A stretch of DNA of 64,000 bases. It comes from Sacculina carcini. Lineage: Eukaryota > Arthropoda > Thecostraca > Sacculinidae. The translations under genes were made by a program, and so were the position numbers. Below the pieces are notes generated by a model. The model had not been told where the DNA came from and made no database searches. It saw nothing but the letters and a program-made list of their open reading frames with translations. Each line of letters begins with the position of its first letter. Position 1 is the first letter of the stretch. The stretch covers positions 3,362,202 to 3,426,201 of the forward strand of contig OU696580.1 of the NCBI GenBank assembly GCA_916048095.2, read 5' to 3'. Of the stretch, positions 26,063-64,000 are shown piece by piece.

Positions 26063-29000
26063 GTCAGTTGACACCGGCCAAACGCTGGCATTCACAACCG
26101 TTCACGCACTTACACACACTCGCTAGCTTCTGATCTTCGCTGCAAAAAACTAGCGAGATGTTGTATGATTGCGTATGGTGAGAGTGAGAGTGAGAGTGAG
26201 AGAGATAGTGTCTGAGTGCGTGAACGTGTTAGTGTGCTCGTGTTTGTGTGACATGTGGCATGTTTCAAGTGTGAATGCCCTGCGGCGGCGAGCAAGTGAA
26301 CAGCTCGCCGCTGATTGGTCGAATATACGAGTGTTTGAACTGGAGCTGTGTGCGTGTGTGTGTTTGTGTGTTCGCATATGGACGGTGTATGTATCGTGCA
26401 GGAGTTTTGTTCGAAGTTTGATAGTGTCTTGGCGTCTTGTAGGCGCGCGTGGGATATCACTGCCCCACGCGCGCCTGTCTGTAAATCCATTTTAGTTTTC
26501 TGTTTCGTTACACGAGAAGTATCGAATCGAAGAGAAAACAGATTGCAAGTTGTCAAAGTGCAATATAATTCAATCTCGTGTGCATACTTGAGTTGAGTTT
26601 ACCTGACCACACCGGCAACAACACATACGAATATGCGCGCCAACTCTAAAAATAGAAATTATATTTCTCAAAACATGCTTCATCCAAATTTTCCACAACA
26701 ATAAAGATATGTTTGCAGTGTATTGAATCTCAAGTTTTCAGTAAGTAGAAACTTCCTAGTCGGATAAATGTTCACATAATTTAACTGAACCTGTCATACT
26801 TCCATACTCCTAAGTATGAAAAGTATCTCCTCATACTTTGCTACATTTTACAGAAAGAAAAACAGACGGAATATGGCATAATTTCCGTGAAGATCACTCG
26901 CTGAACTGAATGGAACAAGCCGTTGTAAACAATTAACTGACATCTTAGACAATACTTTAAGGATAAGGATACTCTCAGGATACTTTAAGAGAAAGCTGAT
27001 GTTGGACTGTGTGTTTGTGTCAATGATTGTTGGCACAGGTGCATCTGCTGACAGCGAGAAAACGTCGCAAGTTGAACACTCATCGATATGTGATGACTGT
27101 CAGCTGTCGAGATTTCACACGATACGGACGAGGATACATGGGTACACGCTAATACTCACTCACAGTTCGGACACTCGCACTTATAAGAACTCTGGCAACC
27201 AATCAGCGGCGAGCTGGTCAAGTGCTCGCTGCCGCGGGACATAAACACTTTACAGTTAACGCAGGACACAGACACACACGAATTACGCAAATGAATGCAT
27301 ACAGTAAACTATATCAAACGCAAACTCTAAAAATACACACGCTTTTTCACTTTCTCTCTTTCTCTCTCTCTTAGCATGTGCAATCACACAAGTTTCAAGT
27401 TTTTCAGTTTACGTACTCTGGAAAGTGTTCAGTCTTTTCAGTTTACGTACTCTGGAGTCTTCATCGTTCTGCATCGCTATATATGCGTGTGCCTGCGTAT
27501 ATACATGTGTACTCACGTATATGTAGCTACAGGAAATGAGCTAAGGTCGAGCTGTCCTGTCTCCCTGTCAATATCCACCTTTATCCAGACTTTCTTTGAA
27601 TTTCCCAATATACTCTGCATTCACAATTTGTGCACTTAAGCCGTTCCTTGTGCGTACACACACATACTAGGAAAGCTGAACAATATCACATTGTTAATAC
27701 ACCTCGTCTTTTTACTGTTTACTGCCATTCACTTTTACTGTTTACTATTCTTTTACAGTTTACTACCATGGCTTCTTCTATCTGATCCATTCCACACTAA
27801 GCAATCCTCTCTGTCAATCTTCTCCAATCCGATTTTATTTTTAGTGTGTGTGTGTGTGTGTGTGTGTGTGAGTCCGCCTCGTAGCCGAGTGGCTAAGACG
27901 TACGTTCTGTGCACGAGAGGTCCTGGGTTCGATTCACTGGTGAGGTGAAACGGTTGGGTTCGTTTCTTAAAGGAATAGCCCAACTACCGCAGGGCGGGTT
28001 TCGTGTGCGCGCAGTGGTGCAATTTTCTGTGCTGGCCGTGACTGCGAGATAACCCGTGTGTGGCGGCCGGACCTGCGGTGTGCCAGCCGGGGCCGTGAGA
28101 CTTTTACCATGCAAAATGCACGCGAACATTAGCCTTTCCACTGCTGTGTTTAAACGCGTAATTATCACATTACTGTTGTGTTCAAACTCGTACTATCATG
28201 TGAGTGTGTGCGTATGTGTGTGTGTGTGTGTGTGTGTGTGTGTGTGTGTGTGTGTGTGTGTGTAAGCAGGTAAGCTGAGCTCAAACGCCCTGGGCACTAG
28301 CTTCACGCTGTACGATGATGGTTTTCAGCCGGGAGTGATGGTGTTGTTTCCCGATGCTCCGCTGCGTCGCGAACTATTGTCCGTGTTTTATGTGAGCAAG
28401 TCAGCTGCATTTCAACCACCTGTCCCGGTGATATTCAGCTCAGGATAGGCGGTTATTATTGGGCAGCAATCCATAATAAACAGAACGAGTGACCAACTGT
28501 TAAGTATCACACAAAATACTGGTATAATTATTATGCTGGATGGAGATCTTTGGAGCGATCAAGCTGCAATTGTCCAGCAGGATTAATTTTAGTCCAAGTT
28601 TTGAGCCGGACTGAGAGTACTGTACCGTTTTCTATCATTCTAACAATACACCACCAAACCACAAATGTCGAACAATTTACGTGAATGTATAGACAGACAA
28701 TTTAGGTGAATGTATGACAGCCGATGTAAGATCTTATGCTCCCCGAGGGCAGAACTAGGGGTCTCCATTATAGATACGGCAATTATGAGCAGCCCCTCGG
28801 TCTCCAGGGGACTTACGGTACCCTTATGTGCTACTTTATGATAAACTAGCATTAAAACCCGCCCGTTGTGCGGAACAATTCATAAAAATATTGCAAATTA
28901 AAAATAAATAAGGCAAACTCATGAAGACCTTAATTAATTAAAAAGTCTAAATTTCATTATTTTTAATTTTATTTTGACAAAATATTTTCACTCAACCCGC

Positions 29001-32000
29001 CTCATATTTAAACCCGCCCGACGTGAGGAATAATTCAGAACTCGAACACCATCCGTTCTGGTTCTTGAAGTCAAATCCATTAGTTTTGTATATGAATTCA
29101 TTCTATACGGTAAAATTGAACGTTTTATTGCTGCCCGTGGGACATTTTTAATTCATAAAAATGAGCCATCGCTTCGTTTGCGTTTCAAGCCCCTGATCAT
29201 TGAACCAGCGAACCATGAACCAGCGCAATTATGTCACCTCATATTCAAGCATACATACACAGACAGACAGATAATTTCTTCTTTATGTATATATATAGCA
29301 TTAAAACCCGCCCGTTGTGCGGAGCAATTCATAACATGAAATTCATATTCAATTCATAAAAAAATATGAAAAAATAAAAATGAAATAGGGTACACTCATA
29401 AAAATATTAATCAATTGAAAATTATAAGTTTAATTATTTTTATTTCGACAAAATATTTCCCCTCAGTCTGCCTGAGTCATTTTTAAACCCGCCCGTCGTG
29501 CTGAATAATTCAGAACTCGAACACGATCCGTTCTGCATCTTGAAGTCAAATCCATTGGTTTTGTGTATGGATTAATTCTACAGGGTAAATTGAACGTTCT
29601 ATTGTCTATAGTTGCTGCCCGCGGAGCATTTTTATTTATAAAAAAATACTTTTTTTAAATGAACCATTTGAAAAAAATGAACTAAAAAATGGAAACACTT
29701 TTTTTAAACCCGCCCGTCGTGCGGAACAATTCATACAATAAAATTCATATTTGAAGTCAAATCCATTGGTTTTGTGTATGGATTAATTCTACAGGGAAAA
29801 TTGAACGTTCTATTGTCTATAGTTGCTGCCCGCAGAACATTTTTATTTGTAAAAAAAATTACCTTTCTTTAAACGAACCATTTGAAAAAATGATCTAAAA
29901 CACTTTTTTAAACCCACCCGTCGTGCGGAACAATTCATACAATAAAATTCATATCAAATCCATAAAATATAATGAATACAAATTGAAAACCAAAAAATGT
30001 AACCTATAAATATCTTAACCAATAGAAAAGTCTAAATGTGAATATTTTTGTTCTTATTTTGACAAATATTATCCCTCAACCCGCCTGATATATAAATCTA
30101 CCCGTCGTGTGGTATAATTCAGAACACAAACACGAAACAAACAATGAAAGATGATGAAATCTTTTCATCAGAATGTTTCCAAACTATATATATTACTTAA
30201 CATCATTCCCCAATATCATTTGCTTAAGTACTATTTCACTTTTTCCGCCATAATATTTATTGTTAAAATTTATATATTTTCCGCTATAATTAAAACCCAA
30301 TATAACCTGAGTCAAACCTACCCAACCCAACCCAATCATCCAATCTTGACCGCTCTCAGCCTAGTCTGAGGTGATTTAACTTATAAGTTTGTGATCACAA
30401 AATATACTGATGCGATCATAATTTGTAATCAGAAGACTGAGATTATCTACCCCAGGGGTCCCAAACACGCGGCCCACCAATACTTTTCTCTCAACCCGCC
30501 AATATAGTATCGGGACCAAACTGTAAGGCAGCTAAATTCACATTTGTTGCATATTGCGATATAATTATACACCATTATCATATTATCTCATAATTCCCGG
30601 TTAATGCTTCCACTAATGCATCATATTCATACAGTTGATATTTTTTGGATTACACCGATATTACAGCCCTTGATATTACAGCCGATATTATATTATGCAA
30701 TCTATATTCTGCTACGTATTATTCCTAATACATATATCATCAGATCGCAAATTATATTTAAAGGTTCACATCATTCTCCAAAATCATTTGCTTAAGAGCT
30801 ATCCTACTTTTATCGCTAGAATATTTACTGCTAGCAAAATATCATATACCTCGCTATCATTTAAACCCACTCTTTATAGATACATTTAATTCGCCCGTCG
30901 TGCGGAACAGTTTATAAAATATAATTAATATTCAATTCATAAAAAAATTAGTGCAAATTGAAAAAGAAAAACAAACCCACAGGAAAGTTTTAGCTAATAT
31001 AAAAGTCTAAATGAAAAATTTATGTTTCAATTTAGAAAACATGTTTTTCCACAACCCGCCTCATATTTAAAGCTGCCCGTCGTGCGGAATAATTCAGAAC
31101 TCAAACACGAAACAAACACAAAGAAAATTGATGAAAAACGACCAATAGAAAAGTCAAATTTGTAAATTCTTGTTTTAATTATTGACGATGGTTTTCCCTC
31201 AACACTACTCAAATTCACACCCGTCCTTCGTGTGTAGTAATTCAGAGGTGTAACACTATCAAAACAATGAAACATCTCTATAATTCCAGATTAATGCTTC
31301 CTCTAAAACAGCATATGCATATACTTGGCATTGCATGATATTACAACCCGTATCCTTATGCAGCTTAAGCGTATGCAACTTGAAATTAAACCAATTAAAT
31401 TACACAGTAAAATTCAGTAGCTTACTTTGTTCCAAGTAGCATTTTACCCGCCCGTCGTGCGGAACATTTGATGTGTAAATATTGAGGACAATAAAGACTT
31501 TCTATTCAGTATAGTGTAGCATTAATTAAACTGTACGCAAAAAAACCACACCATCCATGCTTGGAGCTAATATGATGCATTCTTAATTGTGATTGGGCTT
31601 CAGTGAAATTTAATCGGTGTATATTCCTGTGTAATCGCAAGTGCGCATAATAGCTGTCAAATTGGCAATATGTCCTTTTCACTTTACACCGCCGTAACTT
31701 CCTTCAGATACCCTTTGGAAAATTACAAATTATACCATATTGTAGAAAACAAGATTTCTAGCACGATGGTATAATTTATTTTTATGTATAACAAATAGTT
31801 ACTATGAAATAGTAGAAAAATATATTAATTTTAGTCGCCCGGTGTTCAAGTGTAATTTTGGATGTATTTGAGAATTTTGCCAATTTTACACGTTTTTTGT
31901 ACCATTTGTGGGTATAAATTATAGCTTATCTTGTAGAACAAAAAATTATCTACACAGTTGTATATTCCTGTGTAATCGCAAGTGCGCATAATAGCTGTCA

Positions 32001-63885: not shown

Positions 63886-63889
63886 CTGC

Positions 63890-64000
63890 CACACACACAC
63901 ACACAAACACACACACACACACACATATATACACATACATATACACACACACACATATACACACTCACACATATATACACACACACATATATACACACAC
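63890..64000 (+). repeat. CA-rich tract at the exon A acceptor
   Basis: CA repeats with ATATAC interruptions up to the window edge. They read as TG/TATG in the Sbf sense direction, ending four bases before the exon A acceptor. Confidence 0.9.

What the first reader, a model, noticed from the sequence alone, without database searches (positions are those of the whole stretch)
27039..63990. (TG)n microsatellites sit at most 3' splice sites, always in sense orientation
I could place 21 acceptors by protein similarity and phase (15 in Sbf on the minus strand, 6 in the tubby gene on the plus strand). About 15 have a TG-repeat tract within roughly 4-25 bases upstream of the AG: Sbf A, B, C, E, F, G, H, I, J, K, M, N, O and tubby c, d, f. 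The tract is TG in the sense direction in both genes, so it flips strand with the gene. Tracts of the opposite sense exist in the same introns (51060-51200, 61497-61596, 61905-62003) but none lies at an acceptor. This suggests that (UG)n replaces or supplements the polypyrimidine tract: it is half uridine and free of AG. UG repeats are known ligands of TDP-43 and CELF-type proteins, and the (UG)n tract at CFTR exon 9 alters splicing. A genome-wide dependence would make repeat-length variation a splicing variable in this species.
Basis: partly seen in the sequence, partly recalled or inferred. Interest (0 to 1): 0.9.

Follow-up and report, generated by a model that had tools for sequence, protein, structure and literature searches.

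The report
UG tracts replace polypyrimidine tracts
In this crustacean genome (closest named relatives are barnacles) the stretch just before exons, which in other animals is rich in the letters U and C, is instead an alternating U-G stretch, often a pure (TG)n microsatellite, so a normally variable repeat appears to sit in a core splicing signal.

Summary
Confirmed and extended. In the window I placed 13 Sbf acceptors: the joined exons read as one ORF with no stop over 12 junctions. Eleven of 13 have sense (TG)>=4 within 60 nt; none has AC within 100 nt. Over 125 homology-placed acceptors (151 examined) from Sbf, tubby, myosins and kinesins, 65 have (TG)>=4 in the last 50 nt and 0 have (AC)>=4. 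A 12-nt window with >=11 G/T occurs at 87 of 125, one with >=11 pyrimidines at 4. Pyrimidine content of the tract (0.550) equals that of upstream intron (0.547); G rises 0.195 to 0.322 and C falls. Pyrimidine enrichment, reported for Drosophila and eight further species, is absent. AC tracts are modestly enriched at intron starts, recalling teleost (AC)m/(GU)n introns, but 17 of 30 TG introns have no AC>=4 tract upstream, so pairing cannot be general. TDP-43 is present (RRM1 of one of three loci checked). U2AF2 is two intronless copies with diverged RRM1-2. Best reading: (UG)n is the polypyrimidine-tract substitute. Function and effect of repeat length are untested; no RNA-seq or related genome was available.

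The parts
63151..63167 (-). sense TG tract before Sbf acceptor, exon starts 63144
61741..61829 (-). sense TG tract before Sbf acceptor, exon starts 61735
57959..58033 (-). sense TG tract before Sbf acceptor, exon starts 57951
56908..56925 (-). sense TG tract before Sbf acceptor, exon starts 56904
56342..56360 (-). sense TG tract before Sbf acceptor, exon starts 56332
55809..55821 (-). sense TG tract before Sbf acceptor, exon starts 55801
54568..54586 (-). sense TG tract before Sbf acceptor, exon starts 54564
53315..53324 (-). sense TG tract before Sbf acceptor, exon starts 53308
50954..50964 (-). sense TG tract before Sbf acceptor, exon starts 50939
47618..47648 (-). sense TG tract before Sbf acceptor, exon starts 47611
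45236..45319 (-). sense TG tract before Sbf acceptor, exon starts 45232
28215..28262 (+). sense TG tract before an acceptor of the gene read as tubby, exon starts 28270
34395..34416 (+). sense TG tract before an acceptor of the gene read as tubby, exon starts 34431
40878..40893 (+). sense TG tract before an acceptor of the gene read as tubby, exon starts 40905
61496..61595 (-). sense AC tract 11 nt after Sbf donor 61606 (the intron's acceptor 60049 has only a degenerate TG stretch)
45106..63144 (-). Sbf (MTMR5/13-type) exons 1-13 as placed here; Myotub-related, C1 and PH domains found

Best explanation
In this lineage the 3' splice-site tract has changed from U/C-rich to U/G-rich. A run of alternating UG, from degenerate (UGUAUGUUUGUCUG) to perfect (UG)n, lies where the polypyrimidine tract normally lies, between branch point and AG. 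It supplies regularly spaced uridines for U2AF2, and a perfect (UG)n contains neither A nor AG, so scanning for the first AG meets none. Replication slippage lengthens such tracts into microsatellites, while AC runs are excluded there. Shown: position, sense orientation, occurrence in four gene families, absence of pyrimidine enrichment, strong AG avoidance. Inferred: that this is a change from an ancestral U/C tract, that the tract is bound by the splicing machinery (U2AF2, perhaps with a UG-binding helper), and that it is needed for exon recognition.
For: 65 TG and 0 AC among 125 acceptors, sign test 5e-20. G/T window at 87 of 125 but pyrimidine window at 4 of 125; in the segment -150..-107 the counts are 27 and 12 of 105. 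Composition -5..-35 T .444 G .322 C .106 A .127 against T .389 G .195 C .158 A .258 at -91..-150; AG observed/expected 0.18. The 51 of 107 acceptors without (TG)>=4 are still G-rich and C-poor (G .247, C .146). Tract end a median 11 nt from the intron end; AG-free zone median 70.5 nt for 56 TG acceptors, 45 for the other 51. Human U2AF65 is said to read uridines by hydrogen bonds and to tolerate diverse tracts (passages of PMC10946897); base-contact residues named in PMC4786784 passages (Q147, K225, R227, K260, F304, K329) are kept in both U2AF2 copies here.
Against: No RNA data: acceptors are inferred from protein homology and an AG near the hit, and a few kept rows look coding upstream (C23:4230948; L143). 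No binding data; an AA pair in the tract cost human U2AF65 about five-fold in affinity (PMC4786784 passage), and K340, another named contact, is R in both copies. Some acceptors have neither kind of tract (49491). G enrichment falls as TG runs are excluded (G .219, C .198 in the 15 of 107 acceptors without TGTG), so the shift is largely carried by repeats.
Confidence: 0.6

Rival explanations
1. Passive accumulation: the splicing machinery here needs only an AG-free, A-poor tract. TG runs are the slippage product that satisfies this, AC runs are weeded out, and UG is not specifically recognised.
For: AG is strongly avoided (0.18); a published analysis holds that AG avoidance explains part of the polypyrimidine tract (PMC10946897 abstract and section 3.6); TG and AC repeats are common in this window.
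Against: AC runs contain no AG either, yet are 0 of 125 at acceptors against 65 TG; T also rises. A-poor alone does not predict C depletion.
Confidence: 0.2
2. Intron-bridging RNA duplex, as in the teleost/lamprey class: (AC)m near the 5' splice site pairs with (GU)n near the 3' splice site and relieves the need for U2AF2.
For: AC density is 47.5/kb in the first 100 nt against 16.2/kb mid-intron, in 8 of 48 introns; of 10 introns with AC in the first 150 nt, 8 have TG in the last 100; Sbf intron 61606-60050 starts with a 100-nt AC tract.
Against: Only 8 of 48 introns have both; association not significant (22 of 38 without early AC also have TG; Fisher p=0.28). 17 of 30 TG introns have no AC>=4 tract upstream. 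The AC figure leans on few tracts: 18.6/kb, 4 of 29, in myosin introns alone. U2AF2 is kept, in two copies.
Confidence: 0.12
3. A UG-specific protein (TDP-43, CELF or similar) rather than U2AF2 defines these acceptors, having become an activator in this lineage.
For: Three TDP-43 N-domain matches; RRM1 of one copy aligns with human TDP-43 over all 80 residues; TDP-43 binds single-stranded (GU)12 with KD of about 5 pM or less (PMC12697283 passages).
Against: In human CFTR exon 9, missplicing needs TDP-43 on UG upstream of the acceptor (PMC12171016, abstract start in listing). 60 of 125 acceptors have no perfect run of four repeats. CELF not searched.
Confidence: 0.08

Closest known systems
Teleost/lamprey (AC)m...(GU)n introns (Lin et al. 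2016, Genome Res; paper not held; known here from passages of two reviews, PMC7404189 and PMC9198270, and from recall)
   Same: Sense GU repeats at the 3' end of introns; modest AC enrichment at the 5' end.
   Different: There the two repeats co-occur at opposite intron ends and pair; here GU tracts mostly stand without an early AC tract and the whole acceptor composition has shifted to U/G. An arthropod, not a fish.
CFTR exon 9 (UG)m and human pUG tracts near splice sites
   Same: UG repeats directly upstream of an acceptor; human pUGs of 12 or more repeats are said to lie mostly in introns near splice sites (PMC12697283 passage).
   Different: In CFTR the tract weakens the exon and sits beside a pyrimidine tract (the latter recalled). 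Here it stands in place of one at most sampled acceptors.
Canonical polypyrimidine tract / U2AF2 recognition
   Same: Same position, AG-poor, uridine-rich.
   Different: C is depleted and G enriched; pyrimidine fraction equals background, unlike Drosophila and the eight further species of PMC10946897 (short introns; abstract and section 3.6).

Membership tests
teleost/lamprey (AC)m-(GU)n introns | GU repeat at intron 3' end, sense | tested here: met
   30 of 48 introns have TG in the last 100 nt; 65 of 125 acceptors in the last 50
teleost/lamprey (AC)m-(GU)n introns | AC repeat at the 5' end of the same intron | tested here: not met
   8 of 48 introns have both; 22 have TG without AC in the first 150 nt
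teleost/lamprey (AC)m-(GU)n introns | Splicing independent of U2AF2 | not testable with these tools
   U2AF2 genes present; dependence unknown
canonical polypyrimidine tract | Over-representation of pyrimidines before the AG | tested here: not met
   Y 0.550 against 0.547 upstream
canonical polypyrimidine tract | Avoidance of AG upstream of the acceptor | tested here: met
   AG observed/expected 0.18
TDP-43-regulated UG element | TDP-43 with a conserved RRM1 encoded in the genome | tested here: met
   (RRM1 of one of three loci compared; binding itself not tested)
TDP-43-regulated UG element | Binding and effect on exon inclusion | not testable with these tools
   no CLIP or RNA-seq

The most novel reading that the evidence does not exclude
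A species-wide recoding of the 3' splice-site tract from polypyrimidine to poly-UG, co-evolving with a duplicated, intronless, fast-changing U2AF2 pair whose RRM1-RRM2 differ (64% identical) while the C-terminal UHM region is kept nearly identical, probably by gene conversion. Core splicing strength is thereby tied to microsatellite length, making exon inclusion polymorphic across the genome.
Probability: 0.25. Interest if true: 0.92.

Novelty: new variant of a known kind. Interest (0 to 1): 0.75.

Why it matters
The polypyrimidine tract is treated as a nearly universal animal splicing signal. A genome in which pyrimidine enrichment is absent but AG avoidance is intact separates two explanations of that tract that are normally confounded. 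It gives a natural system for how U2AF2 and TDP-43 share UG-rich acceptors, and for whether slippage at a core splice signal makes splicing variable. Gene finders that rely on pyrimidine tracts would miss exons in such a genome.

Tried and rejected
General pairing of AC and GU within introns: rejected as the main mechanism. Loss of TDP-43 as the reason UG is tolerated: rejected, TDP-43 is present. Neutral microsatellites without orientation: rejected (65 against 0). Genome-wide pattern counts (forward 8927, reverse 2511; reversed-pattern control 1314 and 4676): not used, because overlapping starts seem to be counted on one strand only (my inference). Kinases as a further intron-bearing family: unusable, since only the best 130 of 714 candidates were scored and these are almost all unbroken full domains. 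PF03372 likewise returned mainly long ORFs that look like transposons. SID-1 protein search for taxonomy: no hit. Branch-point motif (YTNAY, CTRAY) by distance: no clear peak. L039 and L040, upstream of the window, were fetched and only listed for ORFs; no exon of them is counted. Literature: the rows listed (not every hit was listed) showed no paper on UG-type acceptors across a genome outside the fish/lamprey class; the library holds only open-licence papers.

Caveats on counts: 151 acceptor candidates were examined (82 myosin, 33+20 kinesin, 13 Sbf, 3 tubby). 26 myosin and kinesin rows were dropped before the 125: no YAG within 18 nt of the hit, a hit starting at the domain's first residues, or one doubtful hit; so YAG endings there are by selection and no evidence. 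The kinesin exons examined are 53 of 123 matches, chosen from multi-exon genes. Of 41 myosin exon pairs tried, 39 junctions were placed and 29 kept (score 1.0 or more); of 13 kinesin pairs 7 were kept. At least one kept junction (C4, profile 350/350) is probably misplaced, since the AG nearest the hit follows a TG tract. An earlier, rougher set of 35 myosin introns cut at the hit ends gave first-100 AC 47.6/kb, last-100 TG 140/kb and middle TG 20.3/kb, AC 10.7/kb.
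Full report
What the window is. The window is G000:C15:3362202-3426201 of a 264.4-Mb assembly in 43 contigs. An uninterrupted myosin-ID ORF elsewhere in that assembly has its best named relatives in barnacles (Amphibalanus amphitrite and Pollicipes pollicipes, 64% identity each), then decapods at 58-59% (best 120 listed). 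So the source is most likely a thecostracan crustacean. A Sacculina carcini draft of 298 Mb is published (PMC9582164, passages), but I cannot name the species.

The observation. On the minus strand I placed 13 Sbf exons. Joined, they read as one frame of 1,028 residues with no stop over 12 junctions and match Myotub-related, C1 and PH domains. Eleven of the 13 acceptors have a sense TG run of at least four repeats within 60 nt, up to 89 nt long; none has AC within 100 nt.

Genome-wide test. Pfam searches of the assembly gave 82 myosin-head matches and 123 kinesin-motor matches; 26 of the latter span the whole motor domain. Without choosing any AG, the 100 nt upstream of the exon hits contain (TG)>=4 in 41 of 82, 17 of 33 and 10 of 20 cases, and (AC)>=4 in 2, 1 and 0. 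With YAG acceptors placed near the hits, 125 acceptors remain of 151 examined: 65 have (TG)>=4 in the last 50 nt and none has (AC)>=4. By group: Sbf 11 of 13, tubby 3 of 3, myosin 31 of 65, kinesin 11 of 26 and 9 of 18. In the myosin set the same count is 5 of 65 at -150..-200 and 6 of 65 at -350..-400, with AC at 1 and 3 of 65.

Composition. Between -5 and -35 the 125 acceptors are T .444, G .322, C .106, A .127; at -91 to -150 they are T .389, G .195, C .158, A .258. Pyrimidines do not rise (0.550 against 0.547) while G+T rises from 0.584 to 0.767. A published comparison, on short introns, found pyrimidines over-represented near intron 3' ends in Drosophila and in all eight further species examined (PMC10946897 abstract and section 3.6). 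A 12-nt window with at least 11 G/T is present at 87 of 125 acceptors, one with at least 11 pyrimidines at 4 of 125. AG avoidance is intact (observed/expected 0.18). The 51 of 107 acceptors without (TG)>=4 are also shifted (G .247, C .146), but the effect shrinks as shorter TG runs are excluded: G .219 and C .198 in the 15 without TGTG.

Whole introns. In 48 introns (29 myosin, 12 Sbf, 7 kinesin), TG bases per kb run 12.9 (first 100), 19.2, 6.8 (middle), 51.2, 145, 288.8 (last 50); AC runs 47.5, 36.8, 16.2, 21.5, 3.3, 0. AC is thus modestly enriched at the 5' end, in 8 of 48 introns; in myosin introns alone it is 18.6/kb against 9.1/kb mid-intron. Ten introns have AC in the first 150 nt; 8 of these have TG in the last 100, against 22 of 38 of the others (p=0.28). 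Seventeen of 30 TG introns have no AC>=4 tract upstream.

Trans factors. U2AF2 is encoded by two uninterrupted head-to-head genes on C26, both above the TIGR01642 cut-off. Their RRM1-RRM2 regions are 64% identical to each other and 76% (copy B) and 68% (copy A) identical to Amphibalanus, which itself is 83-87% identical to the two insects and one shrimp compared (P0126, P0130, P0194). Five successive 60-column DNA windows near the 3' end are 97-100% identical between the copies while most of the rest is far lower, which suggests gene conversion. Copy A carries Y152F, F197Y, K328R and R334L at positions invariant in the best 120 homologues; both copies have N289H, N in 119 of 120, the exception being an unnamed protein, P0124. 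Of the contacts named in passages of the U2AF65 structure paper (PMC4786784), Q147, K225, R227, K260, F304 and K329 are kept in both copies, K340 is R in both. TDP-43 has three N-domain matches; RRM1 of the C29 copy aligns with human over all 80 residues.

Mechanism. The simplest account is that (UG)n serves as the pyrimidine-tract substitute: uridine at every second base, no A, no AG. Long tracts push the nearest upstream AG, and so the possible branch point, far upstream (AG-free zone at least 100 nt in 15 of 56 TG acceptors). Binding and function are inferred. The chief puzzle is TDP-43, which binds single-stranded (GU)12 at picomolar affinity (PMC12697283 passages) and in human CFTR exon 9 is required for missplicing (PMC12171016, abstract start in listing).

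Relation to known systems. The fish and lamprey (AC)m/(GU)n introns are the nearest kind (known here from review passages, and recall). Here the 5' partner is usually missing, so membership is not met as a rule, though a minority of introns (8 of 48) resemble them.

Limits. No transcripts, no related genome, four gene families dominated by motor proteins. Acceptors are homology-based and a few kept rows may be wrong. The effect of repeat length is untested.

Noticed in passing
G000 C20:3262236-3456307; C24:7686419-7776248; C31:15647-86543; C15:7158645-7313723; C35:6985695-7149718: Arrays of unbroken ORFs of roughly 1,500-2,900 aa, several carrying two or more protein-kinase domains at regular steps (1,386 nt apart on C20 and C24); the best 130 scored of 714 kinase candidates are almost all full, uninterrupted domains.
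   Followed up: no
G000 C11:1881371-2062534 and other contigs: 26 of 123 kinesin matches span the whole motor domain in one piece, 23 of them without a stop; eight of these lie in one array on C11, beside ordinary multi-exon kinesin genes elsewhere.
   Followed up: no
G000 C26:1032223-1033476 (-) and 1035393-1036658 (+): Head-to-head uninterrupted U2AF2 pair, RRMs diverged, DNA near the 3' end 97-100% identical.
   Followed up: partly
G000 C26:5886003-5886991 and C29:895365-895583: Three loci with the TDP-43 N-terminal domain, two of them head to head.
   Followed up: partly
window 23061-25286 (+): Uninterrupted 742-aa SID-1 dsRNA-channel family ORF; none of the 8,000 protein candidates scored.
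   Followed up: partly
G000, many contigs: Many ORFs of about 1,245-1,292 aa with an endonuclease domain and repeated identical scores, probably LINE elements (identity inferred); active LINEs could explain the intronless copies.
   Followed up: no
window about 28840-40860: Repeated stretches sharing the motif cccgcccgtcgtgcggaacaattcat, possibly a transposon or satellite family (seen by eye).
   Followed up: no
G000 C23:545260/547195 and C36:4878646/4879577: Two versions of the same muscle-myosin exon within about 2 kb in two genes, as expected for mutually exclusive exons (interpretation recalled).
   Followed up: no
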